A stretch of DNA of 64,000 nucleotides, taken from assembly GCF_004122165.1 (NCBI RefSeq), contig NZ_SBKO01000003.1, positions 62,001-126,000 on the forward strand, given 5' to 3'. The position numbers were made by a program, and so were the translations under genes. This document shows, in pieces, positions 23,468 to 37,269 of the stretch (its first letter is position 1; every line of letters begins with the position of its first letter). Origin of the DNA: Flavobacterium amnicola (lineage in GTDB: Bacteria; Bacteroidota; Bacteroidia; Flavobacteriales; Flavobacteriaceae). The notes beneath the pieces are model-generated. The model was not told the DNA's origin, made no database searches, and was given only the letters and a program-made list of their open reading frames with translations.

Positions 23468-25027
23468 TTATGCATTTTTCTTCTTCTTATTTCTGTAAAA
23501 ATCGTAACCAAACCAACCTACTAAAAGGATTAAGAAATACTTAAAGTATGAAGTGGGTTGTCCGTCGCCACCAACAGTGCAAAATAATCGGTCCCAACGA
23601 ATTTTATCAATGGCTTTGCTCCAAGGTGTATTTGGGTCAATACTCCACCAAATAAAAACTGGTTTCCCTACTACGTGATCCATTGGAACAAATCCCCAAT
23701 AACGGCTGTCTTCCGAACGATGTCTGTTATCTCCCATCATCCAGTAATAATCTTGTTTGAAGGTGTAATTCGTCGCTTCTTTGTCGTTAATGAATATTTT
23801 ACCCCCTTTTTCTTCTAGTTTGTTACCTTCATAGACTGTGATTAGTCTTTTGTATAAAGGCAAAGTTTCTTTGTTTAAAACTACTGTTTTATTGGCTTCC
23901 GGAATATAGATTGGACCGTAATTGTCTTGTGACCATTTTTGGTTGTGTGGAAATAAACCTTTGTCAATTTCAGTTGGGAATGGTGCTATATTTCGTGTCA
24001 GTGATTTTACTGCTGGATTGTTTTTTAATTTTTGTGCTCCAGCATCAGTAAGTGCTCCAATGATATATTCGTTTGGATTTCCGGTAGGATACACTCCGTC
24101 CGTAATTCCAATTTCACGAACAATATAATTTTCGTCAAAAGCAGAACCATCGGTTAGTAAAGTATACGAGTATTGTGGTCGTGCTCTTTCTGGTAAAATT
24201 AATTTTTTATTGTTAATGTAAACAAATCCTTCTTTTATGGATAAGTTGTCTCCAGGTAATCCAACGCAACGTTTTACATAGTTAGAACGTTTGTCCTTAG
24301 GTTTGTCGATATGTCTTCCAGAGCGATCAAAAAATTGATACACAGTATCCGCAGGCCAATTGAAACACACAATATCATTATGTTCTATTTTTTGCAATCC
24401 AGGTAAACGGAAAGAAGGCAATTGTGGTTTGCTCAAATATGATTTTGCTTTGACCACCATCATACTATCATGAACCATCGGCAAGGCTACAGCAGTAGAC
24501 GGAGTTCTTGCGCCATAATGAAATTTACTCACAAATAAGAAATCACCTACCAATAACGATTTTTCTAACGAGGATGTCGGAATATTAAACGGTTGCATCA
24601 CATAGGTATGCACCAATGTAGCGACAATAATAGCATACAATAAAGAAGCAATGGTGTCGCCTGATTTAGTGGTGGGAACCAAACTTCTATTGCGTTTGTA
24701 AGTAACATCTTCAGCGTAATTGATGTAGTAAATGTAAAAACCAAGGGTAAGGACTCCTAATAGGGTATCTTTACTCGTGTTTTTGCCAAAACTTCTTAGC
24801 GTTTCTACCCAAACGACTATAAACATGATTAGGTTGACAATAGGTACAAACAATAAAGCCGTCCACCAAGTAGGACGATTTATGATTTTCATTAAGATGA
24901 TAGAATTGTACACAGGAATAAAGGCTTCCCAAGATTTTCTACCGGCTTTTTCATATAATTTCCAAGTCCCTAATCCGTGAATAAGTTGAACTACTAAGAA
25001 AAAAATTAACCACTGTAATGCTGTCAT
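23468..25027 (-). CDS. lepB: Signal peptidase I, long Bacteroidetes form
   Basis: Cleaves signal peptides from exported proteins at the outer face of the inner membrane. The 519 residues include three to four N-terminal membrane segments (to about 145) containing a TM-DUF region. The catalytic Ser153 is in IPTSSLEKSL and Lys252 in SNYVKRCVGLPGD. The late motif MGDNRHRSEDSRYWGFVP and a final membrane helix near the C-terminus follow. The protein is about twice the usual bacterial length because of a large insert between the catalytic Lys and the GDN motif, normal for this phylum. It lies downstream of dapB after a 136-base gap. Confidence 0.92.
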   Translation of the reverse strand: MTALQWLIFFLVVQLIHGLGTWKLYEKAGRKSWEAFIPVYNSIILMKIINRPTWWTALLFVPIVNLIMFIVVWVETLRSFGKNTSKDTLLGVLTLGFYIYYINYAEDVTYKRNRSLVPTTKSGDTIASLLYAIIVATLVHTYVMQPFNIPTSSLEKSLLVGDFLFVSKFHYGARTPSTAVALPMVHDSMMVVKAKSYLSKPQLPSFRLPGLQKIEHNDIVCFNWPADTVYQFFDRSGRHIDKPKDKRSNYVKRCVGLPGDNLSIKEGFVYINNKKLILPERARPQYSYTLLTDGSAFDENYIVREIGITDGVYPTGNPNEYIIGALTDAGAQKLKNNPAVKSLTRNIAPFPTEIDKGLFPHNQKWSQDNYGPIYIPEANKTVVLNKETLPLYKRLITVYEGNKLEEKGGKIFINDKEATNYTFKQDYYWMMGDNRHRSEDSRYWGFVPMDHVVGKPVFIWWSIDPNTPWSKAIDKIRWDRLFCTVGGDGQPTSYFKYFLILLVGWFGYDFYRNKKKKNA

Positions 25028-25032
25028 AATTT

Positions 25033-25056
25033 GATTTTTAGATTTTTAGATTTTTA
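25033..25056 (+). repeat. Three tandem GATTTTTA octamers
   Basis: Exact 8-base units at 25033-25040, 25041-25048 and 25049-25056 in the dapB-lepB spacer, just upstream of the lepB start. The remainder of the 136-base gap is AT-rich with no clear promoter box. Confidence 0.6.
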
Positions 25057-25163
25057 GACTTCTTAGATTTGAGAGAAGTTTTAAACATCTAAAATTTCAT
25101 TAATTTATATTTTTTATTTTTTGTTTGTCGCTAATTTTCTAAAGATCTAAGCAGTCTAAAGAT

Positions 25164-25868
25164 CTAACGACCTAGATTTAATACGTCCTTCATAGTGAAA
25201 ATACCTTTTTTACCGACCAACCATTCGGCGGCAATCACGGCTCCTAATGCAAATCCTTCACGGCTGTGAGCAGTGTGTTTGATTTCAATTTGATCAACTT
25301 CACTATCATAAAAAACACTATGTGTACCCGGAACAGTTCCAATTCGTTTGGCTTCAATATGAATTTGATGTTCCGTCGGATTTTCTAATGTCCATTCTTG
25401 GTAAGCCGAATTTTTGATTACTCCGTTAGCTAATGAAATGGCAGTTCCGCTAGGCGCATCTAACTTTTGAGTATGATGAATTTCTTCCATCGATACTTTA
25501 TACTGATTTAAATTCGCCATTATTTTGGCCAAGTATTCATTCAATTCAAAGAAAACATTTACGCCCAAGCTAAAATTTGAACCATAAATGAACCCTCCAT
25601 TTTTTTTCTTACAAAGCGCTACCATTTCATTGTACTTTTCCAACCAACCTGTGGTACCACTCACTACAGGAACATTAGTTGCAAAACATTCCGAAATGTT
25701 ACACACGGCACTATCAGGAACACTAAAATCGATAGCTACATCTGCAGTTTCTAGTCCGTCGAAAGAAGCGCTGCTTGATTTTTTCAAAACTATTTCATGA
25801 CCGCGTTCCAAAGCAATTCGTTCAATCACTTTGCCCATTTTTCCGTATCCTAGAAGTGCGATTTTCAT
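25164..25868 (-). CDS. dapB: 4-hydroxy-tetrahydrodipicolinate reductase
   Basis: Second committed step of the diaminopimelate/lysine pathway; needed for peptidoglycan cross-links. The N-terminal nucleotide motif is GYGKMGK (residues 7-13). The catalytic segment contains the His pair in EIHHTQKLDAPSGTA with the Lys two residues on. The 234-residue length is at the short end of the family. The start shares one base with the stop of the preceding small membrane-protein gene (TAATG), so translation is probably coupled. Confidence 0.94.
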   Translation of the reverse strand: MKIALLGYGKMGKVIERIALERGHEIVLKKSSSASFDGLETADVAIDFSVPDSAVCNISECFATNVPVVSGTTGWLEKYNEMVALCKKKNGGFIYGSNFSLGVNVFFELNEYLAKIMANLNQYKVSMEEIHHTQKLDAPSGTAISLANGVIKNSAYQEWTLENPTEHQIHIEAKRIGTVPGTHSVFYDSEVDQIEIKHTAHSREGFALGAVIAAEWLVGKKGIFTMKDVLNLGR

Positions 25869-26050
25869 TACGCTTTGTTTTTAAATTTTTCAATTAAAGT
25901 TAGCAGTAGCAAACCACTTAACAAACCAATTACAAATATGGAAAGAAATTCGATGGTTCGAATAGCTTCTGTGCCTTTAATTCTGGAATAATTCATTATC
26001 GATAATGATAAAAGAATAGCAATTATTGGAAGTTTTCTATTTTTCATCAT
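25868..26050 (-). CDS. Small two-helix membrane protein, unknown function
   Basis: A 60-residue protein with two hydrophobic stretches (about 7-20 and 36-53) and a basic C-terminus (EKFKNKA). It shares one base with the stop of the DUF5683 gene and one with the dapB start, so it is firmly embedded in the operon and very likely translated. I do not recognise the family. Two ATG codons stand at its start (MMKN). A membrane-bound role is all that can be inferred. Confidence 0.7.
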   Translation of the reverse strand: MMKNRKLPIIAILLSLSIMNYSRIKGTEAIRTIEFLSIFVIGLLSGLLLLTLIEKFKNKA

Positions 26051-26607
26051 CAGAAGTTATAATTTAAGGTTAAACCTACATTTTGTTTATATGTGAATTC
26101 GTTTTGTTGAATTTGTGGTCGTACTGTCAGTTTACCATTGACATTAAATTGTTGCAAATGCGCATCAACATTAGCGTCAACAATATTTAAAATGTATAAT
26201 GCGGAAGTGATTAATAATGATAAATCACGATTTCTTTGATAACCTTTTTGAGCCGTAAGTAAACGATCATCCGTCAATCGTGTTAGTTCAGGATTTAGAT
26301 TCGGATCGTTGGCAAGTCGTTTCTTGTATTCATCACGAACCATGTTGTATTGTTTTTGATTCCAAGTGTACGCATAAATACCCGTTCCAATTGCGGCATA
26401 GACAATTGGAATTTTCCAGTATTTTTTATTGTACGCTTGTCCTGCTCCAGGCAATAATGCAGAGAAAAAAGCCGCTTTGGCAGGTCGTAAAGGATCAATA
26501 GTTGTAGTAACAGTATCGTTGGCTACTAATTTGATTTCATCTTGACTAAATCCAGAAAAATTTCCAAAGCCTATACTAAACAGTGCTATGTATAACCAAA
26601 ATTTCAC
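26050..26607 (-). CDS. DUF5683 domain protein
   Basis: A 185-residue envelope protein of the Bacteroidetes DUF5683 family. It has a signal peptide, then RPAKAAFFSALLPGAGQAYNKKYWKIPIVYAAIGTGIYAY, the hallmark segment with a hydrophobic helix. A polar helix and a hydrophobic stretch near 127-140 follow, and the C-terminus (VGLTLNYNF) looks like a beta-strand. The start is GTG at 26607, sharing one base with the parB stop (TAGTG). The function is not known. Its steady linkage to parB and dapB in this phylum hints at a cell-envelope or division role. Confidence 0.82.
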   Translation of the reverse strand: MKFWLYIALFSIGFGNFSGFSQDEIKLVANDTVTTTIDPLRPAKAAFFSALLPGAGQAYNKKYWKIPIVYAAIGTGIYAYTWNQKQYNMVRDEYKKRLANDPNLNPELTRLTDDRLLTAQKGYQRNRDLSLLITSALYILNIVDANVDAHLQQFNVNGKLTVRPQIQQNEFTYKQNVGLTLNYNF

Positions 26608-27509
26608 TAACCTTTAATTAGTTTGATAATTCTGTTGAAATCTTCTTCGGAATGAAACGGAATAGTAATTTTACCTTTTCCATTACCCGCTACTTTTACG
26701 TCTACTTTAGTTCCGAAATAATCGTTGAAGGTTTTTTTCTCTTCAGTTCCAATTTCAAAAGAAGTAGCAGTAGTTTTTGTGTTAGTGGAAGGTTTTTCAG
26801 GCGTTCCTTCATGATACGCTTTCACCAAAGCTTCTGTTTCACGAACGGATAAATTTTCGCTTACGATTTTTTGGTAAATATCCGTTTGAACGTCGTGGTT
26901 GTCTACATTGATAATCGCACGCCCGTGCCCCATTGAAATGAATCCGTCGCGAATACCCGTTTGGATAATTGGGTCTAATTTTAATAATCGCATGTAGTTT
27001 GCAACGGTAGAACGTTTTTTTCCTACGCGATCACTTACTTGCTCTTGTGTTAATTGAATTTCGTCCATCAAACGTTGGTACGATAAAGCGATTTCAATTG
27101 GATCCAAATCATGACGTTGGATGTTTTCCACCAAGGCCATGGTTAACGATTCGTTGTCATCGGCTAAGCGAATGTACGCCGGAACCGTTTTTAATCCCAA
27201 TAATTTAGAAGCACGCAAACGGCGTTCTCCAGAAATTAATTGGTATTTGTTGAAATCCATTTTACGAACCGTAATCGGTTGAATAACTCCTAGTTCGCGA
27301 ATAGATGTTGCTAATTCTTGTAAAGATTCTTCGTTAAAATTGGTACGCGGTTGAAACGGGTTAATTTCAATCGAATCAATTTCCAATTCGATGATATTCC
27401 CAACTACTTTGTCAGCATTTTTATCGGTTACCGATTTAATATCGTTTTCAGGATCTTTCAAAAGTGCCGATAATCCTCTACCCATTGCTTGTTTTTTTGC
27501 CAATGCCAT
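26607..27509 (-). CDS. parB: Chromosome partitioning protein ParB
   Basis: A 300-residue CTPase clamp that binds parS sites near the origin. The N-terminal ParB/Srx domain has INPFQPRTNFNEESLQELATSI and the CTP-binding GERRLRASKLLGL. VENIQRHDLDPIEIALSY leads into the HTH (LTQEQVSDRVGKKRSTVANYMRLLKL). A linker and a C-terminal dimerisation segment (about 250-300) follow. It sits 18 bases after parA. No parS-like palindrome was noticed near the pair, though a full scan was not done. Confidence 0.94.
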   Translation of the reverse strand: MALAKKQAMGRGLSALLKDPENDIKSVTDKNADKVVGNIIELEIDSIEINPFQPRTNFNEESLQELATSIRELGVIQPITVRKMDFNKYQLISGERRLRASKLLGLKTVPAYIRLADDNESLTMALVENIQRHDLDPIEIALSYQRLMDEIQLTQEQVSDRVGKKRSTVANYMRLLKLDPIIQTGIRDGFISMGHGRAIINVDNHDVQTDIYQKIVSENLSVRETEALVKAYHEGTPEKPSTNTKTTATSFEIGTEEKKTFNDYFGTKVDVKVAGNGKGKITIPFHSEEDFNRIIKLIKG

Positions 27510-27527
27510 ATATCTTTCTCCTAAATC

Positions 27528-28292
27528 TTAACTATTCTTTTTAATAATTTCTTCTGCTAAGTGTAAGTAATTGGTTGCTCCTTTACTGGTAGCATCATAC
27601 CCAATAATACTTTCGCCATAACTTGGCGCTTCACTTAACTTGATATTTCTTTGGATTACGGTTTCAAATACCATGTTATTGAAGTGTTTTTGCACTTCTT
27701 CTACCACTTGATTTGACAAACGTAAACGAGAATCGTACATCGTAAGTAATAAGCCTTCGATGTCTAATTCTGGATTGTGTATTTTTTGAACACTTTTTAT
27801 CGTGTTTAATAATTTTCCTAAACCTTCCAATGCGAAATACTCACACTGAATTGGAATCACCACACTATTGGCAGCTGTAAGCGCATTTAAGGTTAGTAAT
27901 CCTAGTGATGGAGCACAGTCGATAATGATATAGTCGTATTGGTCAACCACACTTGCTAAGGCTTGTTTTAGCATGTATTCGCGGTTTTCTTTGTCGACTA
28001 ATTCTATTTCGATCGCCACCAAATCAATATGTGCAGGAATCACGTCTACATTGGGAGCACTACTTTTAACGATAGCATCGGCTGGGGTATTACTGTGTTC
28101 TAAAATTTGGTAGGTACCAATTTCCACACTTTCCACATCAATGCCTAAACCCGAACTGGCATTCGCCTGTGGGTCTGCATCTATTAACAGTACTTTTTTC
28201 TCTAAAACACCTAATGCGGCCGCTAAATTAATGGAAGTAGTGGTTTTTCCAACGCCTCCTTTTTGATTAGCAATTGCTATGATTTTACCCAT
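27528..28292 (-). CDS. parA: Chromosome partitioning ATPase ParA (Soj)
   Basis: A 254-residue deviant Walker ATPase that moves ParB-bound origins. KGGVGKTT is at residues 11-18 with the signature Lys. The Walker A' and B regions are DADPQANASSGLGI and YIIIDCAPSLGLLTLNAL. It heads the block parA-parB-DUF5683-small protein-dapB-lepB-wbqC. The region upstream (28293-28453) has no perfect -7 box; TATTTTTA near 28355 is the closest. Confidence 0.94.
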   Translation of the reverse strand: MGKIIAIANQKGGVGKTTTSINLAAALGVLEKKVLLIDADPQANASSGLGIDVESVEIGTYQILEHSNTPADAIVKSSAPNVDVIPAHIDLVAIEIELVDKENREYMLKQALASVVDQYDYIIIDCAPSLGLLTLNALTAANSVVIPIQCEYFALEGLGKLLNTIKSVQKIHNPELDIEGLLLTMYDSRLRLSNQVVEEVQKHFNNMVFETVIQRNIKLSEAPSYGESIIGYDATSKGATNYLHLAEEIIKKNS

Positions 28293-28453
28293 TTGATTTT
28301 TGAAATTTTGAGCCGTAAAAATACAATTTATTATGGGATATGAAAATGTATTTTGTTAACAATCTTGTAAAGTTTTGATTGGGAATGGTTTTGGGAGGGT
28401 TGAGTTATTGTTGATGAATTTAAAATTGAAAATGGAGGTATATTTGAAATAAG

Positions 28454-28487
28454 AAAACCAGCTGGGAGGCTGGTTTTTAGTTTTTTA
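28454..28487 (+). terminator. Orphan terminator-like hairpin left of the NUDIX-helicase pair
   Basis: A 9-bp perfect stem AAAACCAGC (28454-28462) with GCTGGTTTT (28469-28477), 6-base loop, followed by a T-rich tail on the plus strand. No plus-strand gene lies upstream, since parA is transcribed away from it. It may shield the downstream genes or be left over from a lost gene. Confidence 0.65.
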
Positions 28488-28502
28488 TTTAAAAGAAATA
28501 AA

Positions 28503-28510
28503 TACATTTG
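28503..28510 (+). promoter_or_regulatory. -7 promoter box for the NUDIX-helicase pair
   Basis: TACATTTG fits TAnnTTTG and lies 18 bases before the ATG at 28529. A TTG inside this box (28508) is an in-frame but unlikely start for the NUDIX gene. No good -33 box was seen; the orphan hairpin's tail occupies that place. Confidence 0.5.
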
Positions 28511-28528
28511 TTTTACTTACAAAAATAC

Positions 28529-28918
28529 ATGATGATAAATGTAACTTGTGCAATCATTAAGATTAATAATAAAATACTTGTAACTCAAAGAAGTGAAAAA
28601 ATGAAATTACCATTGAAATGGGAATTTCCAGGCGGAAAATTGGAAGAGGGTGAAAATGTTGTTGAATGTATTAAACGCGAAATCAAAGAAGAGATTAATA
28701 TTGAAATTGAAGTTGTAAAACAATTAACTAATAGCATTTATAATTATGAAATTTTTACTGTTAATTTGATACCATTTCTATCGGAATATGTGTCAGGAGA
28801 AATTATTTTATTTGAACATAATGACTACAAGTTACTTGAAAAATCTGAACTTTTGCAATTAGATTGGGCTGAAGCTGATTTACCGATTGTTAAAGAATTT
28901 CTAAAACTGGAACTATGA
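28529..28918 (+). CDS. NUDIX hydrolase, MutT/CTP pyrophosphohydrolase-like
   Basis: A 129-residue nucleotide pyrophosphohydrolase-type protein. Counted from the ATG at 28529, the Nudix box runs G36 to I58 with all metal-binding positions (Glu42, REIKEE 50-55); the late Gly is Asn57. The WEFPGGKLEEGE segment and QRSEKMKLPLKW before it resemble MutT-like enzymes that hydrolyse modified (d)NTPs. The stop overlaps the helicase start (ATGA), so the two proteins are probably made together. Substrate unknown. Confidence 0.85.
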   Translation: MMINVTCAIIKINNKILVTQRSEKMKLPLKWEFPGGKLEEGENVVECIKREIKEEINIEIEVVKQLTNSIYNYEIFTVNLIPFLSEYVSGEIILFEHNDYKLLEKSELLQLDWAEADLPIVKEFLKLEL

Positions 28919-31900
28919 ACCAAGGATTGTATGAAGAATTAGTTACTAAACTGATAAACTATAAATTAAACGAATTAAACAAAGACACTTTTCATATAAA
29001 GAAAACTTTAATTGACAAAGCAGAAGCTGCTCAATTATTATCTCAACATATCGGCAAAACTATAAAGCAAGCTTTTAATCTAATTAAAGGTGACGACATA
29101 CTTGAAACTCAAATTGAAATCGCTAATAAAATTATTTTCTTCTTAAAAGAAGAATTAAAAAGAGAAGAGTTTGCAAATGATTTGATAGAAACTGAAGGAA
29201 AAATATTAAAAGCTGTATTTACAAAAGTAGACAGTCATTTTGCTGATTTAGATTTACACCTAAAAGAAATTACACCTTACACTAGATTAATTCATAGTGA
29301 ACTTTTTACAGGCGGAAATTCTGGGACGACTTTAGAAAGTGAATTAAGAAAAGAAATTTTATCATCAGATGAAATTGATTTGTTAGTTTCATTCATAAAA
29401 TGGAAAGGGATTAGAATTCTAGAACGTGAATTGAGAGAATTTACTGAACGAGGTGGGAAGCTAAGAGTAATTACAACAACATATATTGGTGCAACAGATG
29501 CAAAAGCAGTTGAGTTTTTATCTTCTTTAAAAAATACTGAAGTCAAAGTTTCTTATAATACAGGAAATGAGAGGTTACATGCAAAAGCGTATTTGTTTCA
29601 AAGAAAAACAGGTTTTCATACAGGATATATCGGATCTTCAAATTTTTCTCGTTCTGCATTAACAGATGGATTAGAATGGAATTTAAAAATAACAACCAAA
29701 GAAGTTGGTCATATTATTGATAAATTCAAGAAAACATTCGAAGCATATTGGCAAAATTCAGAATTTGAATTGTATGATAAAAATATTCATTCTGTAAAGT
29801 TAGTTGAAGCTTTAAAGCAAGGAAAATTTTCTAAAGAATATACTTTTACAACATCTTATTTTGATTTAAAACCGTTTCATTATCAAAGTGAAATTCTTGA
29901 AAAATTAGAAGTTGAAAGATCAGTTCATAATAGATATAGAAATCTTTTAGTTGCAGCTACAGGAACTGGAAAAACAGTTATTTCTGCTTTTGATTATAAA
30001 AATTTTAGAAATAATAACCAATCATCGAAGTTACTTTTTGTGGCTCATAGAAAAGAAATTTTACAACAAGCAAAAGCAACTTTTCAAGGAATTTTAAAAG
30101 ACAATAATTTTGGCGATTTATGGGTTGATGGAATGGAACCAAACTCAAATGAATATGTTTTTGCTTCGGTTCAAACTTTAAATAATCGACTAAAAGAAAT
30201 TAAACTTTCACCGGAATATTACGATTTTATTATTGTAGATGAAGTACATCATATATCTGCATCAACTTATAGACCGATTATAAATTACTTTAAACCAAAA
30301 GTTCTTTTAGGGTTAACAGCAACTCCAGAAAGAATGGATGATGAAGATATTTTGGAGGATTTCTGTAATCGTATTGCTGCCGAAATTAGACTTCCTGAAG
30401 CTTTAAATAAGAAATTATTAAGTCCGTTCCAATATTTTGGAATTACAGATAGTATAGACTTAACTAATGTAAAATGGGAAAAAGGAAAGTACGTTGCAAG
30501 TGAATTGACGAGTTTATATACAAAAAATGATGTGCGTGTTGGTCAAATAATTTCAAATCTTGAGAAGTACACAAATGATATAAATGATGTGCGAGCAATT
30601 GGATTTTGTGTAACTGTCGAACATGCAATATTTATGACAGAAAAGTTCAATTTAGCGGGTTTAAAAGCAGAATGTTTGACAAGTAAAAATTCAAGTGAAA
30701 GAGATAGAATTAGAGCACAATTCAAGAAAAAAGAATTCAATTATTTATTTGTCGTAGATATTTTCAATGAAGGTGTTGATATACCCGAAATTGATACTGT
30801 TTTGTTTTTAAGACCAACAGAAAGTTTGACAGTTTTTCTTCAACAATTAGGACGTGGATTACGTTTGGCTGAAGGAAAAGATTGTCTAACAGTATTGGAT
30901 TTTGTTGGAAATTCAAGACCAGAATATGATTTTGAAAGTAAGTTTAGAGCATTGATTGGAAAAACTACTACATCTGTGCAAAAGGAAATAGAAGATGATT
31001 TTCCTCATTTACCCTTAGGATGTTCCGTTATTTTAGAAAAGAAGGCTAAAGAAAATATTTTAGAAAACATCAAAAGAGCAACATCACTAAATGTAAATCA
31101 GTTGATAGCAAAGATTAGAAATTTTCAACATCAAACAACGTTACCATTAACATTAGAAAATTTTATTAGTTTAAATCATTTATCAATTGAAACCATTTAC
31201 AAAAAAGATAGTTGGTCGAGATTATGTCAAAAAGCAGGAGTGATTGATGATTTTGAACCAATCAATGAAAAACAAATTTATTCGGCAATTGCAAAAAAAT
31301 GGCTTTCCACTAATTCGATAAGTTATTTCAATTTCATCTTACAGATAGCAAAACAAAATTTTGACATTAAAATTGATGATTTTAGTCAAAATGAAAAAAC
31401 AATGATATTAATGCTACATTACGATGTTTGGCAAAATGCAGGAGGGTTTGATTCGTTAGAAAAAAGTATAAATCAAATTGGAAAAAACAAAACTCTTGTT
31501 AAGGAAATTAATGAAGTATTAGAACTATTAGTTGATAAAATTGGTTTTAAAGAAATTGATATTAAACTTCCTTACGAACAACCTTTGAAGTTGCATGCCC
31601 GATATACAAGAGACCAAATATTAGTTGCTTTTGGATTAAGTACATTTAATAAAAAATCCTCTAATAGAGAAGGTGCAGCTTTTAATGCAAAATTGAATAC
31701 AGAGATTCTTTTTATTAATTTAATTAAATCAGAAGAAGATTTCTCACCAACCACAATGTATGATGATTATGCTATCAATGAAACTTTATTTCATTGGCAA
31801 TCTCATAATGCTTATGGACCAGAAACTTCTAAAGGACAATCATACATAAATCATCTTGAAATCAATAAAAAAATTCTTCTTTTTGTTAGAGAAAAAGCAA

Positions 31901-32055
31901 ACGACAAGAATGGAAATACAATGGGTTATGTATTTATTGGTGAAGGAAACTTTTTGGAAAGCGAAGGATCTAAACCAATGAATATCAAATGGGAGCTAAA
32001 TGAGCCTATGCCAAATTATTTATGGAAAGATTCTGCAAAAATGTCTATTGGATAG
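28915..32055 (+). CDS. PLD-nuclease / SF2 helicase / DUF3427 protein
   Basis: A 1046-residue protein. An N-terminal alpha-helical region (to about 130) precedes a phospholipase D-like domain with HxK at 222-224 (RLHAKAYLF) and GSSNFS at 240-245. This is a single HKD-type half site, so the nuclease would need to dimerise. An SF2 helicase follows: Walker A GTGKT (about 350-354), DEVHH at 442-446, GLTATPER and motif VI QQLGRGLR (643-650). The C-terminal 350 residues match DUF3427 architecture in general layout. The DNA is visibly more A-rich than neighbouring core genes. It is probably a DNA-processing enzyme of defence or repair; no partner methylase is present. Confidence 0.88.
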   Translation: MNQGLYEELVTKLINYKLNELNKDTFHIKKTLIDKAEAAQLLSQHIGKTIKQAFNLIKGDDILETQIEIANKIIFFLKEELKREEFANDLIETEGKILKAVFTKVDSHFADLDLHLKEITPYTRLIHSELFTGGNSGTTLESELRKEILSSDEIDLLVSFIKWKGIRILERELREFTERGGKLRVITTTYIGATDAKAVEFLSSLKNTEVKVSYNTGNERLHAKAYLFQRKTGFHTGYIGSSNFSRSALTDGLEWNLKITTKEVGHIIDKFKKTFEAYWQNSEFELYDKNIHSVKLVEALKQGKFSKEYTFTTSYFDLKPFHYQSEILEKLEVERSVHNRYRNLLVAATGTGKTVISAFDYKNFRNNNQSSKLLFVAHRKEILQQAKATFQGILKDNNFGDLWVDGMEPNSNEYVFASVQTLNNRLKEIKLSPEYYDFIIVDEVHHISASTYRPIINYFKPKVLLGLTATPERMDDEDILEDFCNRIAAEIRLPEALNKKLLSPFQYFGITDSIDLTNVKWEKGKYVASELTSLYTKNDVRVGQIISNLEKYTNDINDVRAIGFCVTVEHAIFMTEKFNLAGLKAECLTSKNSSERDRIRAQFKKKEFNYLFVVDIFNEGVDIPEIDTVLFLRPTESLTVFLQQLGRGLRLAEGKDCLTVLDFVGNSRPEYDFESKFRALIGKTTTSVQKEIEDDFPHLPLGCSVILEKKAKENILENIKRATSLNVNQLIAKIRNFQHQTTLPLTLENFISLNHLSIETIYKKDSWSRLCQKAGVIDDFEPINEKQIYSAIAKKWLSTNSISYFNFILQIAKQNFDIKIDDFSQNEKTMILMLHYDVWQNAGGFDSLEKSINQIGKNKTLVKEINEVLELLVDKIGFKEIDIKLPYEQPLKLHARYTRDQILVAFGLSTFNKKSSNREGAAFNAKLNTEILFINLIKSEEDFSPTTMYDDYAINETLFHWQSHNAYGPETSKGQSYINHLEINKKILLFVREKANDKNGNTMGYVFIGEGNFLESEGSKPMNIKWELNEPMPNYLWKDSAKMSIG

Positions 32056-32067
32056 TGTCTTTTGTAA

Positions 32068-32100
32068 ACAAAAAAAACACCAACATTTCTGTTAGTGTTT
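32068..32100 (-). terminator. Terminator between the helicase and mutase genes
   Basis: Arms AAACACCAACA and TGTTAGTGTTT (ending at 32100) pair with one C-A mismatch around a 4-base loop. On the minus strand an 8-base T-run follows (32070-32077), so it best serves the mutase genes. It can also stop read-through from the helicase side. Confidence 0.75.
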
Positions 32101-32109
32101 AATTATAAT

Positions 32110-32137
32110 GTGAGATTGCTTCGTGCCTCGCAATGAC
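32110..32137. repeat. REP-like palindromic repeat, copy 1
   Basis: Begins GTGAGATTGCTTCG and ends CGCAATGAC with ATTGC/GCAAT as inverted arms. A second copy with the same ends is at 36497-36525. Similar short intergenic elements of this sequence type are widespread in flavobacterial and other genomes. Confidence 0.75.
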
Positions 32138-32147
32138 TGGTTGAGAG

Positions 32148-34277
32148 TTACTCCTCCATCAAAACTTCCAAAATACTAATCGCTGCTTCACTAATTTTAG
32201 TTCCAGGACCAAAAACGGCAACCGCGCCGGCGTCAAAAAGGTATTGGTAATCTTGTGCTGGAATTACTCCACCTACAATCACCATAATGTCTTCACGACC
32301 GTATTTTTTGAGTTCTTCAATTACTTGTGGTACGAGGGTTTTGTGTCCCGCTGCCAAAGAAGAAACCCCTAAAATATGTACGTCGTTTTCCACGGCTTGT
32401 TTCGCTGCTTCTTGTGGCGTTTGAAATAATGGCCCAATGTCTACGTCAAAACCAACATCGGCGTAACCGGTGGCCACTACTTTAGCACCACGGTCGTGTC
32501 CGTCCTGACCCATTTTGGCAATCATAATTCGTGGGCGACGTCCCTCTTTTTTAGCAAAGGCATCTGCTAATTGTTTTGCTTTTTCAAAGCTTTCGTCGTT
32601 TTTGATTTCTTTACTATACACGCCACTAAAACTTCTAATTTGTGCTTTGTATCTTCCGAAAACCGTTTCTAAAGCGTCGCTAATTTCACCTAAAGTGGCT
32701 CTGTTTCGCGCCGCTTCTACGGCCAATTCTAATAAATTTCCACCATTTCCTTTGGCACATTCGATCAATTTTGAAAGGCTTGCTTGTACTTTGGCTGTAT
32801 CACGTGTCGCTTTGATTTGCTCCAAACGTTCAATTTGTTGTTTACGAACCGTTTGGTTGTCCACTTCTAAAATATGTAAGGGATCTTCTTTGTCTAATCG
32901 GTATTGGTTCACCCCCACAATAATATCTTGCCCACTGTCGATGCGCGCTTGTTTACGTGCTGCCGCTTCTTCAATACGTAATTTTGGAATTCCGGCTTCA
33001 ATCGCTTTGGTCATGCCACCTAATTCTTCTACTTCTTCCATCAAAGCCCAAGCTTTTTCGGCAATTTCAGCAGTCAGACTTTCTACATAATAACTTCCCG
33101 CCCAAGGATCAACCGTTTTGCAAATTTTGGTTTCCTCTTGCAAGAAAATTTGCGTATTACGCGCAATACGTGCCGAGAAATCGGTCGGTAAAGCAATAGC
33201 TTCATCTAAAGCGTTGGTGTGTAGCGATTGGGTTCCGCCAAAGGCAGCCGCAGCGGCTTCAATGGCAGTACGGGCTACATTATTAAAAGGATCTTGCTCG
33301 GTTAAACTCCAACCTGAAGTTTGACAATGCGTTCGTAAGGCTAAGGATTTGTCGTCTTTTGGGTTGAATTGTTTTAAGAGTTTTGCCCACAACATTCGAC
33401 CGGCACGCATTTTGGCAATTTCCATAAAATGGTTCATCCCAATTGCCCAGAAAAAAGAAAGGCGAGGAGCGAAGGTATCAATATCCATTCCTGCGGCCAA
33501 TCCGGTACGGATGTATTCTAATCCATCAGCTAACGTATAGGCCAATTCAATATCGGCGGTAGCTCCCGCTTCTTGCATGTGATAACCCGAAATCGAAATC
33601 GAATTGAACTTCGGCATCTTGTTGCTCGTATATTCGAAAATATCGGCAATGATTTTCATAGAAGGCGTAGGTGGGTAAATGTACGTATTACGTACCATGA
33701 ATTCCTTCAAAATATCGTTTTGTATGGTTCCCGACAATAGGTTAGGTGCCACGCCTTGTTCTTCGGCAGCGACAATATAAAAGGCCATGATGGGTAAAAC
33801 CGCACCATTCATGGTCATCGAAACCGACATTTCATCAAGTGGAATTTGGTCGAAAAGCACTTTCATGTCTTCCACCGAATCGATGGCAACACCCGCTTTA
33901 CCGACGTCTCCAACCACTCTTTCATGATCAGAATCATAACCACGGTGTGTGGCTAAGTCAAACGCAACCGACAATCCTTTTTGTCCCGCAGCAAGATTTC
34001 TTCTGTAAAAGGCATTACTTTCTTCTGCAGTTGAAAATCCGGCATACTGTCGAATTGTCCAAGGACGACGAACATACATGGTAGCGTATGGGCCTCGTAA
34101 GTTGGGCGCAAAACCTGCTCCGAACTCTAAGTGTTCTAATCCTTCGATGTCGGATACAGAATAGGTTGGTTTTATTTCGATCCCTTCAGCAGTTAGAAAT
34201 GGGCTCGAAACGATTTCTTCCGATTTTTGATTTCTGACTTCTGAATTTAAAGTAATATGTTGAATGTTTTTTCTCAT
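32148..34277 (-). CDS. mutB: Methylmalonyl-CoA mutase, large subunit with B12 domain
   Basis: Interconverts succinyl-CoA and methylmalonyl-CoA by adenosylcobalamin radical chemistry. The 709-residue protein has the TIM-barrel half ([58 protein letters not shown]). The C-terminal cobalamin domain has the base-off motif DGHDRG near residue 590, and a later [10 protein letters not shown]. It is the catalytic subunit of the pair. It follows the small exported protein gene by 9 bases and ends before a terminator. Confidence 0.95.
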
Positions 34278-34286
34278 AAATGATTA

Positions 34287-34739
34287 CTATTCCACAACTT
34301 TGAAAATATAGTTGCGATAAACCAATGTTTTATGTTTGTTGTTTACCAATGCACCAGTGATAGCTGTTGCTGTTCCTCCCATAAATAAAGCAAAAGCACT
34401 TCCACTTTTAGCAGCACCAGCTACTCCCGAACCTACGATAAGTCCAGCGCCCACTCCGTATAGAATGTTTTTTGCAGTACGGCCTCCTTTGGTGTAGTTT
34501 TTTATACTTCCAATGTTACTTAAAGCGACATCATTTCCGTTAACTGTAATGGTTTCAGCATCTTTTACGGCTAAATCTCCGACAAATTTCTTACGATCTA
34601 GCGTGGTTATTTTTACTCGAGTACCTGATTCAAAAAGTACCGTTTTGCCATTTACTTTGTTTGCCGCTTCTAGCTTTTTGTTTTGAGCTACTGTAGTTAG
34701 GGATAGAAATACTAATAGGATTGAAATTAATTTTTTCAT
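34287..34739 (-). CDS. Small exported protein with glycine-rich membrane segment, unknown function
   Basis: A 150-residue protein with an N-terminal signal peptide (MKKLISILLVFLSLTTVAQ). A beta-rich region of about 60 residues follows (VLFESGTRVKITTLDRKKFVGDL). A glycine-rich hydrophobic stretch (about 92-130, GVGAGLIVGSGVAGAA) resembles glycine-zipper membrane segments. I do not recognise a named family. It lies between the two mutase subunit genes (12 and 9 bases from them), an unexpected place for an envelope protein, so shared transcription does not imply shared function. Confidence 0.7.
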   Translation of the reverse strand: MKKLISILLVFLSLTTVAQNKKLEAANKVNGKTVLFESGTRVKITTLDRKKFVGDLAVKDAETITVNGNDVALSNIGSIKNYTKGGRTAKNILYGVGAGLIVGSGVAGAAKSGSAFALFMGGTATAITGALVNNKHKTLVYRNYIFKVVE

Positions 34740-34751
34740 GTTGTTGAAAGT

Positions 34752-36086
34752 TTATTGGTTTTCGGTGGCTAATCGTTCTTGTTCTAATTTTTCCGCCAAG
34801 CGTTTTTCAATGATTGGAGTAATTAGGGTTTTTCTGGGTTGTATTTTTACGAATGGATAGAGTTCTAAATCGTCTTTCATTCGGTCATTTTTATTTGGAT
34901 ATTTATTCGTTCCGAGTAAGGTTTCTTTTCCTTCATCAAATAAAGTTTGTTCTTTTTCGGCGCTTTCTTTTATTTTTCGTTGGATATTTCCTTCTATCAA
35001 TTGGGTAATAAATCCGCCATTGGCTTCTAATTCTTTAAATAAAAGTAAAGCTTTTTCGGCTAGTTGTTTGGTGATTTCTTCCACATAGTAAGCACCATCT
35101 GCTGGATTGTTGACTTTGTCAAAGTAACTCTCTTTTTTAAGCACTAATAATTGGTTTCTTGAAATTCGGTCTCCAAATTCGTTGTCTTTATGATAAATCG
35201 CGTCATACGCTAGATTCGAAACCGCATTGGCACCTCCTAAAATCGCACTCATGCATTCGGTTGTCGTGCGAAGCATGTTTACGTTATAATCGTATAAGGT
35301 TTTATTTCGCTTAGTTGGAGTAGCAATGATGTGGCAATCGAATTGATGATTGTATTCTTTTGCTAATGCATTGAATAGTTGTCGCAGCGCACGAAGTTTG
35401 GCAATTTCGAAGAAATAGTTGGTGCCGACAGCGACGTTTATCGTTATCGGTTTATCGATAGCTGAAACGCGGTTGAAATATTCATTCACATGTGCTAAAA
35501 TATAAGCCAATTGCTGTACCATGTTGGCACCAGCATTCTGATAGGTTTCGGCATTTACACTTAGCGTTGCATTGAGTTGATTGAGTGTAGTAAAGTCGGC
35601 ATCAAGATTGGAAAACCAATTGCCATCTTTTACTAATTGTCCGATTGGATCCAATTCTATAATGGTATCTGGTCTTACGGATTGTATGCTTTTTACGAAT
35701 TCAGCCTTTAAAAAAGTAGGTTTGATGTACACTTGAACATCGGAAGGAATAGCATGTAACAATTTCTCTACAGCAATAGTTTCGTCTGCAATAGTCAATC
35801 GAATACTTTCCGCACCACGCGATAAGGTGTCTAAGGCTCTTGTGATCGATTTGTCTACATCATGCACAAAAATATTTTGAACGATTTTGAAGTTGGTGGC
35901 CGACGTAGTGATTTGAGCCGGAGTTACGGTCTCATCGATATGATAAAATGGCTTGACTTTTATGCCTTCCGGACTTTCCCAAACCAATGTTTCGTTATAA
36001 TCGGCACCTTTCAGTTCGTACTGAATTTGTTGTTTCCATTGTTTGGAGGAAACCGCATCGAATTCGTTAAATAACTCTTTTGACAT
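34752..36086 (-). CDS. mutA: Methylmalonyl-CoA mutase, small subunit
   Basis: A 444-residue paralogue of the large subunit lacking the cobalamin domain. It forms a heterodimer with MutB and is catalytically silent. It shows LFNEFDAVSSKQWKQQIQYELKGADYNETLVWESPEGI at the N-terminus, typical of Bacteroidetes small subunits. Later segments include FEIAKLRALRQLFNAL, TECMSAILGGANAVSNLAYD and DGAYYVEEITKQLAEKAL. It is shorter than Propionibacterium MutA, as usual for this phylum. No GTPase chaperone (MeaB) is adjacent. Confidence 0.92.
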   Translation of the reverse strand: MSKELFNEFDAVSSKQWKQQIQYELKGADYNETLVWESPEGIKVKPFYHIDETVTPAQITTSATNFKIVQNIFVHDVDKSITRALDTLSRGAESIRLTIADETIAVEKLLHAIPSDVQVYIKPTFLKAEFVKSIQSVRPDTIIELDPIGQLVKDGNWFSNLDADFTTLNQLNATLSVNAETYQNAGANMVQQLAYILAHVNEYFNRVSAIDKPITINVAVGTNYFFEIAKLRALRQLFNALAKEYNHQFDCHIIATPTKRNKTLYDYNVNMLRTTTECMSAILGGANAVSNLAYDAIYHKDNEFGDRISRNQLLVLKKESYFDKVNNPADGAYYVEEITKQLAEKALLLFKELEANGGFITQLIEGNIQRKIKESAEKEQTLFDEGKETLLGTNKYPNKNDRMKDDLELYPFVKIQPRKTLITPIIEKRLAEKLEQERLATENQ

Positions 36087-36116
36087 TCTGTTATTTGTAT
36101 TTTATTATTTTGAAGC

Positions 36117-36446
36117 TTACTCGATGGTATCGCCTTCAAATTCTATGATGTAAATATCTTCGTTTTCTTTTTTCATGTAATATTTTTCGCGAGCATACCG
36201 TTCAATTTCGGCAGGATTTTTAAGCTTTTTGATGCTTTTTCTATCCTTAGTGATCTCGTCTTGGTAGTATTTTTTATTGTCTTCAAGCTCTTCAATTTCT
36301 TTGTTTAAAAGCCGATGATCTAAATAGGAATAATTGTCTAAAAAGAGTAACCATACAATAAAAAAAACGGTAACAATAAAGTATTTGTTCCCCAAGAATT
36401 GGAGCCAACTATTGTTTTCGATTATTTTTTTGAAAGGGTTTTTCAT
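36117..36446 (-). CDS. FtsB/DivIC-like septum formation protein
   Basis: A 109-residue single-pass protein: short cytoplasmic start, membrane helix at about 22-42, coiled coil (NKEIEELEDNKKYYQDEI) and the C-terminal motif PAEIERYAREKYYMKKENEDIYIIE. This last motif is characteristic of the FtsB/DivIC family that links FtsL and FtsQ in the divisome. It lies 30 bases upstream of mutA on the same strand, and may share a transcript with it. Confidence 0.87.
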   Translation of the reverse strand: MKNPFKKIIENNSWLQFLGNKYFIVTVFFIVWLLFLDNYSYLDHRLLNKEIEELEDNKKYYQDEITKDRKSIKKLKNPAEIERYAREKYYMKKENEDIYIIEFEGDTIE

Positions 36447-36466
36447 TTTTGAAATGCAATTACACT

Positions 36467-36555
36467 AGCCCTGATAATAGTGGAAATCCTGTTGGTGTGA
36501 GATTGCTTCGCAAGCTCGCAATGACAGATTGCAACGGATAGCAGGAAATAGCTCC
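36467..36555. ncRNA. Candidate structured intergenic element with REP-like loop
   Basis: Three nested complementary pairs are visible: AGC with GCT (36551-36553), CCTG (36471-36474) with CAGG (36542-36545), and ATCC-GTT (36486-36493) with AACGGAT near 36533-36539. A REP-like palindrome fills the terminal loop. The conserved-looking outer parts resemble a repeat often seen between flavobacterial genes and might correspond to the Flavo-1 RNA motif, but I cannot verify that. Which strand is transcribed is unclear, though both neighbours are on the minus strand. Confidence 0.4.
36497..36525. repeat. REP-like palindromic repeat, copy 2
   Basis: GTGAGATTGCTTCG to CGCAATGAC, sharing both ends with copy 1 at 32110-32137 and differing in the central bases (CAAGCT in place of TGCCT). 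It lies in the loop of the structured element at 36467-36555. Confidence 0.75.
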
Positions 36556-36571
36556 TAAAAATAGTAAATAT

Positions 36572-37180
36572 TTATGAAATACGCTGATTAATTACTGCTC
36601 GTACCACATCAATAGCCACCGTGTTGTATTTATCGTTCGGGATAATGATATCGGCATGGGCTTTGGTAGGTTCGATGAATTGTTCGTGCATTGGTTTTAA
36701 AGTCGTTTGATAACGGCTTAAAACCTCTTCCATGTCGCGACCACGCTCGGCAATATCGCGTTTTAAACGGCGAATTAAGCGTTCATCAGAATCGGCATGG
36801 ACATAAATTTTGATATCAAACATTTCGCGAAGTTCTGGATTGGTTAGGATTAAAATACCTTCGACAATCATTACCTTTCGGGGATGGGTATGAATAGTAT
36901 CGCCAGTACGGTTGTGCTTTACGAAAGAATAAACAGGTTGGTCAATGGGTTTGCCGTCTTTTAAATCTTTTAGATGTTGCACTAAAAGTTCAAAGTCGAT
37001 GGAACGCGGATGATCGAAGTTGATTTTGGTACGATCCTCAAGTGACAAATCACTAGTTTCTCTATAATAATGATCTTGAGAAATAATACCGACTTCTGTT
37101 TCGGGTAATTCGTTCATGATTTGATGAACAACAGTTGTTTTTCCTGAACCTGTTCCGCCTGCAATGCCTATTATTAACAT
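36572..37180 (-). CDS. udk: Uridine kinase
   Basis: Phosphorylates uridine and cytidine to UMP and CMP in pyrimidine salvage. Counted from the ATG at 37180 it has 202 residues. The P-loop is GGTGSGKTT. SQDHYYR, NFDHPRSIDFELL, VMIVEGILIL and DSDERLIRRLKRDIAERGR follow. The frame can be extended to a TTG at 37267, but a -7 promoter box lies between the two, so the short form is chosen. Confidence 0.93.
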   Translation of the reverse strand: MLIIGIAGGTGSGKTTVVHQIMNELPETEVGIISQDHYYRETSDLSLEDRTKINFDHPRSIDFELLVQHLKDLKDGKPIDQPVYSFVKHNRTGDTIHTHPRKVMIVEGILILTNPELREMFDIKIYVHADSDERLIRRLKRDIAERGRDMEEVLSRYQTTLKPMHEQFIEPTKAHADIIIPNDKYNTVAIDVVRAVINQRIS

Positions 37181-37205
37181 ATAAAAGTGTGTTGTGGGTA
37201 AAGGG

Positions 37206-37213
37206 CAAAAGTA
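37206..37213 (-). promoter_or_regulatory. -7 promoter box for udk
   Basis: The minus strand reads TACTTTTG followed by CCC, 25 bases before the udk ATG. It settles the choice of the short udk start. No -33 box at consensus spacing. Confidence 0.5.
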
Positions 37214-37269
37214 GGAAATATTTTTTAGAGTATTTTGTTTAGAATTTATGTTTTTTATCGGATTCAAAC

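What the first reader, a model, noticed from the sequence alone, without database searches (positions are those of the whole stretch)
28454..32100. NUDIX plus PLD/SF2-helicase/DUF3427 pair as a candidate defence or repair module
Seen: two plus-strand genes overlapping by ATGA, a MutT-like hydrolase and a 1046-residue protein joining a single HKD phospholipase-D half-site, a complete SF2 helicase and a long C-terminal region of DUF3427 layout. The pair is bordered by terminator-like hairpins, lies between conserved core operons and looks more A-rich. Known: PLD nuclease with helicase combinations recur in phage defence (DISARM, Mokosh), but those use different helicases or separate proteins. 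Inference: a nucleotide-sanitising enzyme coupled to a DNA translocase-nuclease could sense or destroy modified foreign DNA, or repair oxidised DNA. I am not aware of a tested function for this pair.
Basis: partly seen in the sequence, partly recalled or inferred. Interest (0 to 1): 0.72.

Follow-up and report, generated by a model that had tools for sequence, protein, structure and literature searches.

The report
Restriction enzyme with nucleotide-pool guard
Two overlapping genes encode a SauUSI-like enzyme that probably shreds DNA carrying methylated cytosine and a small hydrolase that probably destroys the same methylated cytosine while it is still a free DNA building block, so a restriction enzyme may come with a partner that keeps its target out of the cell's own DNA.

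Summary
In detail: a NUDIX gene and a 1046-residue PLD/SF2-helicase/DUF3427 gene overlap by ATGA, between core genes, in AT-richer DNA. The large protein is not of unknown kind: it is a SauUSI-type type IV restriction enzyme. The less-noticed part is the NUDIX. It sits beside such enzymes in 78 of 144 non-redundant loci with known flanks (not a random draw): upstream, downstream or convergent. In Staphylococcus aureus it lies one base before SauUSI and is the protein of PDB 5X1X. [quoted passage not shown] I propose a mobile restriction module with a nucleotide-pool guard that keeps modified dCTP out of host DNA, or starves phages of it. Against: many copies are solo, SauUSI works alone in E. 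coli, and a predicted scarcity of m5C methyltransferases holds in this genus but not outside it. The adjacency is in print for streptococci; I found no proposed function.

The parts
28453..28478 (.). terminator-like hairpin, scored on both strands, left border of the unit
   Evidence: sequence
28503..28510 (+). TACATTTG, matches the Bacteroidota -7 element TANNTTTG (consensus recalled, not tested); possible promoter of the pair, which would rule out the TTG start at 28508
   Evidence: sequence; inference
28529..28918 (+). NUDIX hydrolase (ATG start preferred; TTG start at 28508 also open); Nudix-box glutamates intact, Asp at the NudG D118 / MutT N119 position
28915..32055 (+). SauUSI-type type IV restriction enzyme, 1046 aa, start overlapping the NUDIX stop (ATGA)
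28915..29331 (+). N-terminal extension (residues 1-139), longer than the SauUSI N-terminus by about 100 residues; no Pfam match; low-confidence helical model
29332..29754 (+). PLD nuclease domain (residues 140-280); H222-x-K224 codons at 29578-29586
29866..30927 (+). SF2 ATPase (residues 318-671); Walker A K353, D442, E443 and motif VI R650 kept in 156 of 156 rows
30928..31584 (+). coupler-like helical region (residues 672-890, by alignment with SauUSI)
31585..32040 (+). SRA-type domain (residues 891-1042, part of DUF3427); F933, I934, D951, W961 align with SauUSI pocket residues F841, I842, D858, W868
32075..32100 (-). terminator-like hairpin scored on the minus strand only, 48 bases after the mutase stop; right border, probably the mutase gene's own terminator

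Best explanation
A mobile two-gene type IV restriction module. The large protein is a SauUSI-type enzyme: its SRA domain reads 5-methyl- or 5-hydroxymethylcytosine in double-stranded DNA, the SF2 motor translocates on ATP, and paired PLD half-sites cut (shown for SauUSI in print; inferred here by homology, fold and conserved residues). The NUDIX is a pyrophosphohydrolase for 5-substituted dCTP. [quoted passage not shown] The same base is thus removed at two levels: as a precursor and as DNA. Shown here: pairing, predicted fold, motifs, repeated juxtaposition. Inferred from relatives: substrate. Inferred only: self-protection as the main benefit. Separate confidences: type IV enzyme 0.92; NUDIX acts on 5-substituted (d)CTP 0.62 (lowered a little after the wider tree); self-protection is the main role 0.45.
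For: Type IV enzyme: PADLOC mREase_IV 788.7 bits over 119-1043; SauUSI 7CLG E 2.6e-84, aligned over residues 142-1016; 7CLG is rank 1 in the fold search; for the C-terminal model 7CLG scores Z 13.5 (rmsd 2.7, 133 aligned), next SUVH6 Z 9.2, and rows 1-47 are modification-dependent restriction enzymes, SUVH or UHRF readers, plus four mouse cytoplasmic-lattice chains; D951 kept in 146, W961 in 152, F933 in 140 of 156 rows. Pairing: 14 of 16 genus carriers; 16 of 38 carriers elsewhere in the phylum sample; 25 of the best 80 named loci, 17 upstream and 8 downstream; 25 of the 30 best SauUSI-type loci in the class of G492, 19 upstream and 6 convergent; 78 of 144 non-redundant, with at least 19 paired/solo changes on one FastTree tree. 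Background: 2 non-adjacent NUDIX against 60 adjacent rows among 1354 ORFs, enzymes included, of 162 partly redundant loci. S. aureus: NUDIX ends at 2828, SauUSI starts at 2830 of L267; that NUDIX is 5X1X, identical over 130 residues. Substrate: in a 128-row NUDIX tree 3GWY lies in a clade (0.96) whose 17 other members include 15 enzyme-adjacent ones; its kcat/Km is 4.8e6 for 5-Me-dCTP, 4.4e6 for 5-MeOH-dCTP, 8.5e4 for 5-OH-dCTP; NudG 1.3e6 for 5-methyl-dCTP. SauUSI cuts m5C and hm5C DNA, not glucosylated hm5C or m4C. The window's genome has no m5C methyltransferase over the Pfam cut-off (one match at 19.2 bits below it) and no second PDC-S07-like NUDIX at E 1e-12.
Against: SauUSI alone restricts in E. 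coli, though E. coli has NudG. 66 of 144 loci are solo, including 18 of 18 gammaproteobacterial loci among the 80. Carriers without an adjacent NUDIX are not consistently compensated: 9 of 16 Firmicutes genomes have no PDC-S07-like NUDIX at E 1e-15 (two of the 16 have short flanks). m5C methyltransferases are rarer in genus carriers (1 of 16 against 53 of 85, p 4e-5) but not in the phylum sample outside the genus (17 of 38 against 142 of 333, p 0.86); the genus result is not corrected for relatedness. SauUSI positions M829/Y831 align ambiguously and vary, so the base read may differ. The window NUDIX is below the NudG equivalog cut-off (74.5 against 156) and lies on another branch than 3GWY and 5X1X; the row nearest to 3GWY (L210, 0.765) is not enzyme-adjacent. 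The Asp at the NudG 118 position is no mark of pairing: all 40 non-adjacent NUDIX rows have it too. Among 30 3GWY-like NUDIX loci from 247 genomes of one order only 3 sit beside the enzyme, though these include the two best matches.
Confidence: 0.48

Rival explanations
1. Offence rather than self-protection: during infection the NUDIX destroys the 5-hydroxymethyl-dCTP or 5-methyl-dCTP that a phage makes for its own DNA, while the nuclease cuts phage DNA that is already modified, so the phage loses either way.
For: Same substrate evidence as the main reading; NUDIX genes travel with the enzyme on plasmids and beside an McrBC component in L109. A MazG-like pyrophosphohydrolase and an SLFN-g3 helicase follow the pair in L205.
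Against: Removing the modified precursor would hide phage DNA from the partner nuclease; no infection data; solo enzymes are common.
Confidence: 0.25
2. The NUDIX binds a nucleotide and regulates the restriction enzyme (sensor or licensing subunit) rather than cleaning the pool.
For: ATGA-type overlap in 31 of 52 upstream rows (redundant loci counted), which often goes with complexes.
Against: Six copies are convergent, not co-transcribed; the Nudix-box glutamates are invariant in 40 aligned sequences; partner types are exchanged (L028, L033); SauUSI needs no partner in vitro.
Confidence: 0.1
3. Oxidised-nucleotide cleaning or DNA repair (8-oxo-dGTP or 5-hydroxy-dCTP), only by chance coupled to the nuclease.
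For: MutT similarity (72.1 bits); NudG also acts on 2-OH-dATP.
Against: Asp, not Asn, at the MutT N119 position in the window NUDIX and in all other rows but MutT; 3GWY is about 50 times weaker on 5-OH-dCTP than on 5-Me-dCTP; repeated juxtaposition with one enzyme family.
Confidence: 0.1
4. Hitch-hiking in defence islands with no functional link between the two genes.
For: Solo copies are frequent; NUDIX genes of this type are also common elsewhere.
Against: 2 non-adjacent against 60 adjacent NUDIX rows in the same loci (redundant); upstream, downstream and convergent arrangements; in S. suis PDC-S07 and type IV RM co-localised in 23 of 23.
Confidence: 0.07

Closest known systems
SauUSI (S. 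aureus type IV restriction enzyme; PDB 7CLG)
   Same: PLD-SF2-coupler-SRA order, HxK half-site, pocket residues F, I, D, W; a NUDIX gene directly upstream in S. aureus and in a close SauUSI relative of unnamed origin, L237
   Different: about 24% identical in the fold alignment; the window protein is longer by about 100 residues at the N-terminus; specificity untested
5X1X, 'Mutator mutT protein', encoded beside SauUSI in S. aureus
   Same: closest solved relative of the window NUDIX (E 1.7e-22) in the same gene order
   Different: no substrate data seen; another NUDIX branch
3GWY / Q5LBB1, Bacteroides fragilis 5-methyl-(d)CTP pyrophosphohydrolase
   Same: E 3.1e-21 to the window NUDIX; its clade is mostly enzyme-adjacent NUDIX proteins (15 of 17 others); substrates match the bases SauUSI attacks
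   Different: another NUDIX branch; its nearest row (L210) is not enzyme-adjacent; its own neighbourhood in B. fragilis was not seen
E. coli NudG (Orf135, PDB 2RRK)
   Same: Asp at position 118; acts on 5-methyl-dCTP
   Different: 30% identical; not next to a restriction enzyme
PADLOC PDC-S07 and mREase_IV models
   Same: each protein hits one (159 and 789 bits); the two co-localise in S. suis
   Different: listed as separate models; the PDC-S07 model also hits NUDIX genes in settings without the enzyme

Membership tests
SauUSI-type type IV restriction enzyme | PLD nuclease half-site HxK with S/N | tested here: met
   H222, K224 in 155 of 156, S241 and N243 in 156 of 156 aligned rows; PLDc_2 46.9 bits. 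The E126 position of SauUSI is Q here and variable
SauUSI-type type IV restriction enzyme | SF2 ATPase with motifs I, II, VI | tested here: met
   K353, D442, E443, R650 in 156 of 156
SauUSI-type type IV restriction enzyme | C-terminal SRA fold | tested here: met
   predicted model of residues 842-1046, pLDDT 82.9; 7CLG Z 13.5, rmsd 2.7, 133 aligned; next rows SUVH, AspBHI, AbaSI, ScoMcrA, MspJI at Z 8-9
SauUSI-type type IV restriction enzyme | 5mC pocket residues | tested here: inconclusive
   F933, I934, D951, W961 match SauUSI F841, I842, D858, W868; M829 and Y831 align ambiguously
SauUSI-type type IV restriction enzyme | ATP-dependent cleavage of m5C/hm5C DNA and restriction in vivo | not testable with these tools
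   needs protein and phage or plasmid assays
NudG equivalog (NF007834) | score over the curated cut-off | tested here: not met
   74.5 against 156 bits
NudG-like 5-substituted dCTP hydrolases | Nudix-box glutamates and Asp at NudG 118 | tested here: met
   Asp in 56 of 56 adjacent rows (the window's own counted twice) but also in the 40 non-adjacent rows; E58, E61 and E62 among the invariant columns of 40 sequences
NudG-like 5-substituted dCTP hydrolases | hydrolysis of 5-methyl-dCTP over dCTP | not testable with these tools
   known only for relatives
MutT (8-oxo-dGTP) | Asn at position 119; equivalog cut-off | tested here: not met
   Asp instead; 72.1 against 97.9 bits
RadD repair helicase | equivalog cut-off | tested here: not met
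   126.2 against 720 bits
DISARM | drmA, drmB and methyltransferase genes beside a PLD gene (gene set recalled) | tested here: not met
   Pfam of the ten neighbours at 23468-37267 shows core genes (one without a match), none of that set; DrmC model only 30.2 bits on the large protein
Mokosh | helicase and PLD proteins of that system (recalled) | not tested
   no dedicated comparison; no Mokosh-named row in the PADLOC list

The most novel reading that the evidence does not exclude
SauUSI-type restriction is a substrate-matched two-level system: a nucleotide-pool arm (NUDIX) destroys 5-methyl- and 5-hydroxymethyl-dCTP, and a DNA arm destroys DNA that contains the same bases. It would be a restriction system whose self-tolerance rests on keeping the mark out of the precursor pool instead of on a methyltransferase, and it would include S. 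aureus SauUSI itself.
Probability: 0.43. Interest if true: 0.75.

Novelty: new variant of a known kind. Interest (0 to 1): 0.61.

Why it matters
Type IV enzymes are described, in the texts I read, as single-protein barriers. If a pyrophosphohydrolase beside them clears the same modified base from the dNTP pool, that would explain how a cell can keep an enzyme that shreds 5mC DNA while it salvages nucleotides from restricted DNA or is infected by phages that make modified dCTP. It would also give a function to PDC-S07 NUDIX genes that sit beside such enzymes, and to the S. aureus protein of PDB 5X1X. Both halves can be assayed with purchasable nucleotides and existing structures.

Tried and rejected
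Methyltransferase anti-correlation: strong in the genus, absent outside it, so it is not used as support beyond the genus. Compensation by an unlinked NUDIX: I gave 41 of the 80 named loci (18 gammaproteobacterial without adjacent NUDIX, 7 with a downstream NUDIX, 16 Firmicutes without one, two of these with short flanks). 9 of the 16 have no match, which speaks against compensation; all 18 gammaproteobacteria have one, but the model cannot tell MutT from NudG, so this is uninformative. PDC-S07 as a defence-specific marker: rejected, since its matches include open frames of about 360-400 aa (probably MutY C-termini, not tested) and stand-alone NUDIX genes beside other genes. A 4422-aa open frame with the helicase in G188 is an artefact, a run of unread bases. 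Flanking direct repeats or att sites: only short AT-rich matches. Neighbourhood of the B. fragilis 3GWY gene: not reached, since no named B. fragilis record came up. The whole-length structure model is mediocre (pLDDT 68.7), so its C-terminus was remodelled alone. Literature: SauUSI with Nudix gave 1 paper and SauUSI with MutT 2; a figure legend notes MutT homologues beside SauUSI homologues in Streptococcus. Further term searches showed nothing on the link, but only 40 of 606 hits and 15 of 74 were listed, and 30 of 52 SauUSI papers. Subscription papers are not in the library, and the original SauUSI paper is not held.

Dropped rows: protein rows were left out before the tree as fragments, assembly gaps or second helicases (a named list in the script plus rows under about 800 aa), and 11 rows with too little flank were counted as unknown; two solo rows (L162, L183) have a NUDIX 1.4-2.2 kb away. 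Loci are partly redundant. Of the 38 phylum carriers outside the genus, G146 was not fetched and some others lie at contig ends; these count as not paired. Of the 29 parA loci only 1.5 kb of flank was held and three (L281, L289, L290) stop at contig ends.


Full report
What is there. The two ORFs exist as described: a NUDIX gene and a 1046-residue gene that starts inside the NUDIX stop codon. Pfam finds NUDIX in the first and, in the second, PLDc_2, ResIII, Helicase_C and DUF3427 in that order. The pair is AT-richer than its flanks. A hairpin on the left scores as a terminator on both strands; the one on the right scores on the minus strand only, so it is probably the terminator of the mutase gene. 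The neighbours are core genes by Pfam: ParA, ParB, DapB and signal peptidase on one side, two methylmalonyl-CoA mutase genes on the other. The NUDIX is most likely read from an ATG at 28529 or 28532: a TANNTTTG-like box (a consensus I recall, not tested) overlaps the TTG at 28508.

The large protein is a SauUSI-type type IV restriction enzyme. PADLOC's mREase_IV model scores 788.7 bits over residues 119-1043. The PDB sequence that aligns along residues 142-1016 is 7CLG, which the fold library titles the ATP-dependent restriction endonuclease SauUSI. The passages I read of a review (PMC3874153) and of the SauUSI structure paper (PMC7913695) state that SauUSI is a single polypeptide that cuts m5C and hm5C DNA with ATP, with a PLD nuclease, a translocating SF2 ATPase, a coupler and an SRA-type target recognition domain whose pocket includes M829, Y831, F841, I842, D858 and W868. 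In the window protein F933, I934, D951 and W961 stand at the last four of these positions. Over 156 aligned rows D951 is kept in 146, W961 in 152, F933 in 140, the PLD H and K in 155 and the tested ATPase residues in all. The first two pocket positions align ambiguously, so the base that is read may differ from that of SauUSI.

The C-terminal domain was modelled alone (205 residues, 21 sequences, pLDDT 82.9). Foldseek's first hits are 7CLG, the hm5C enzyme AbaSI and the methyl-DNA reader SUVH6. VIA-align gives 7CLG Z 13.5 (rmsd 2.7, 133 aligned), then Z 9.2 and less for modification-dependent restriction enzymes and SUVH or UHRF readers; these fill rows 1-47, apart from four chains of mouse cytoplasmic lattices whose numbering looks like UHRF1. 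So DUF3427 here is predicted to be an SRA reader of modified DNA.

Mobility. In 101 genomes of the genus, 13 (own included) hold a full-length relative at 62-100% identity and 3 more a divergent one at 32-34%. I read the neighbourhoods of the 15 others: none lies between parA and the mutase gene (some contigs or stretches are short). A further relative, G353, has the pair directly beside the mutase gene but with another gene on the far side. Of 29 other genus loci around parA none has the pair within the 1.5 kb held (three stop at contig ends), and two show mutase gene, short-chain dehydrogenase, parA without it. Related pairs occur on plasmids of Hymenobacter canadensis, Lactiplantibacillus plantarum and Latilactobacillus curvatus. 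Some copies stand near other defence genes: an AAA and an McrBC component gene in L109, DndC in L029, and an Orf5/HEC-06 protein in L108, about 10 kb before the pair of L109.

The NUDIX partner. 14 of the 16 genus carriers have it directly upstream. In the phylum sample outside the genus it is beside the enzyme in 16 of 38 carrier genomes. In the best 80 named loci it is upstream in 17 and downstream in 8, 7 of these 8 in Firmicutes by record title. In the 30 best SauUSI-type loci of 250 genomes of another class (88 of them with a match) it is upstream in 19 and convergent in 6. In the combined non-redundant set 78 of 144 with known flanks are paired, the SauUSI-like clade in 37 of 42, with at least 19 changes between paired and solo on the tree (FastTree). 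This set is not a random draw. Inside the same loci only 2 non-adjacent NUDIX genes occur, against 60 adjacent rows, among 1354 ORFs (redundant loci and the enzymes counted). In a 128-row NUDIX tree all upstream and convergent partners lie in one clade (0.967), together with many stand-alone NUDIX genes, and 7 of 8 downstream partners lie outside it. Two window-type enzymes (L028, L033) carry a NUDIX of the 3GWY branch; the L028 NUDIX is 46% identical to the window's while its enzyme is 86% identical. So partners seem to have been exchanged or recruited more than once.

S. aureus. In a record of S. aureus strain 333 the gene annotated (deoxy)nucleoside triphosphate pyrophosphohydrolase, WP_000755954.1, ends one base before the SauUSI start, whose first residues match 7CLG. 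This NUDIX is identical over 130 residues to PDB 5X1X, the closest solved relative of the window NUDIX. The two depositions carry unlinked names.

Substrate. The window NUDIX falls below the curated cut-offs of NudG (74.5 against 156 bits) and MutT (72.1 against 97.9), so it is not filed under either. It has Asp at the NudG D118 / MutT N119 position, as do all other rows but MutT, adjacent or not: this sets it apart from MutT but does not mark pairing. The Nudix-box glutamates are invariant. The second closest solved relative, 3GWY from Bacteroides fragilis, lies in a clade (0.96) with 17 other rows of which 15 are enzyme-adjacent; its nearest row is not. The window NUDIX lies on another branch. 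In print (PMC5158307, passages and Table 2 read) 3GWY hydrolyses 5-Me-CTP at 6.7e6, 5-Me-dCTP at 4.8e6, 5-MeOH-dCTP at 4.4e6 and 5-OH-dCTP at 8.5e4 per M per s, with much lower activity on canonical NTPs; NudG is listed at 1.3e6 for 5-methyl-dCTP against 4.7e4 for CTP. SauUSI attacks m5C and hm5C, not glucosylated hm5C or m4C. The nuclease and the NUDIX relatives thus share their modified bases, one in DNA and one as the triphosphate. The title of another paper seen in a listing (PMC4491611) links the human MazG-type enzyme DCTPP1 to 5-methyl-dCTP metabolism and global hypomethylation, so such precursors may matter for DNA. A MazG-like gene follows the pair in L205.

Mechanism and limits. I favour self-protection: restricted foreign DNA yields 5-methyl-dCMP, and salvage or phage kinases make the triphosphate; once incorporated it would mark the host's own DNA for the enzyme, and the NUDIX breaks this loop. 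All of this is inference. Against it: SauUSI works alone in E. coli, though E. coli has NudG; 66 of 144 loci are solo; 9 of 16 Firmicutes genomes without an adjacent NUDIX have no PDC-S07-like NUDIX at all; and the expected scarcity of m5C methyltransferases is seen in the genus (1 of 16 carriers against 53 of 85, Fisher p 4e-5) but not outside it (17 of 38 against 142 of 333, p 0.86). A direct antiphage role by precursor destruction fits nearly as well.

What is known. PADLOC has both models. A Streptococcus suis study reports PDC-S07 and type IV RM co-localised in 23 of 23, within 20 genes (passage read), and a 2020 survey notes in a figure legend that MutT homologues lie beside SauUSI homologues in Streptococcus (section read). 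A 2020 eLife paper predicts DUF3427 to bind modified DNA (passage read). I found no proposal of the function of the NUDIX in what searches listed, within the limits of an open-access library.

Verdict. The window pair is a member of a widespread arrangement. Its nuclease is of a known kind; the NUDIX partner, whose assayed relatives act on the same modified bases, makes it a new variant worth a simple assay.

Noticed in passing
L085:4125-6497 (G228): A 790-aa single protein joins a PDC-S07-type NUDIX to a PDC-S41 protein (950.8 bits; Pfam SLFN-g3 helicase): an independent NUDIX-helicase fusion.
   Followed up: partly
L205:2493-7797 (L. plantarum plasmid NZ_CP028230): NUDIX, SauUSI-type enzyme, MazG-like pyrophosphohydrolase and a GIY-YIG + SLFN-g3 helicase protein in a row: two unrelated nucleotide pyrophosphohydrolases beside one type IV enzyme.
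   Followed up: partly
L109:2447-9128 (G319): NUDIX and SauUSI-type enzyme followed by an AAA_5 gene and an McrBC component gene, apparently two 5mC-dependent systems side by side.
   Followed up: partly
PADLOC PDLC04899 (PDC-S07): The model is unspecific: in 395 genomes it matches 270 at E 1e-12, many in frames of 360-400 aa (probably MutY, not tested) or stand-alone NUDIX genes, so defence counts of PDC-S07 may be inflated.
   Followed up: partly
L161:7122-7958: NUDIX directly downstream of the enzyme, fused to a GNAT acetyltransferase domain.
   Followed up: no
L175:1279-3870 and L180:893-3370: A second, divergent PLD-helicase-like gene lies upstream of the SauUSI-type gene.
   Followed up: no
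L267 (NZ_CP077890, S. aureus strain 333): A record filed as a plasmid carries chromosomal-looking genes (scrA, phospho-sugar mutase) and the SauUSI gene in fragments.
   Followed up: no
window 28915-29331: The N-terminal extension of the window-type enzyme has no Pfam match and a low-confidence helical model.
   Followed up: no
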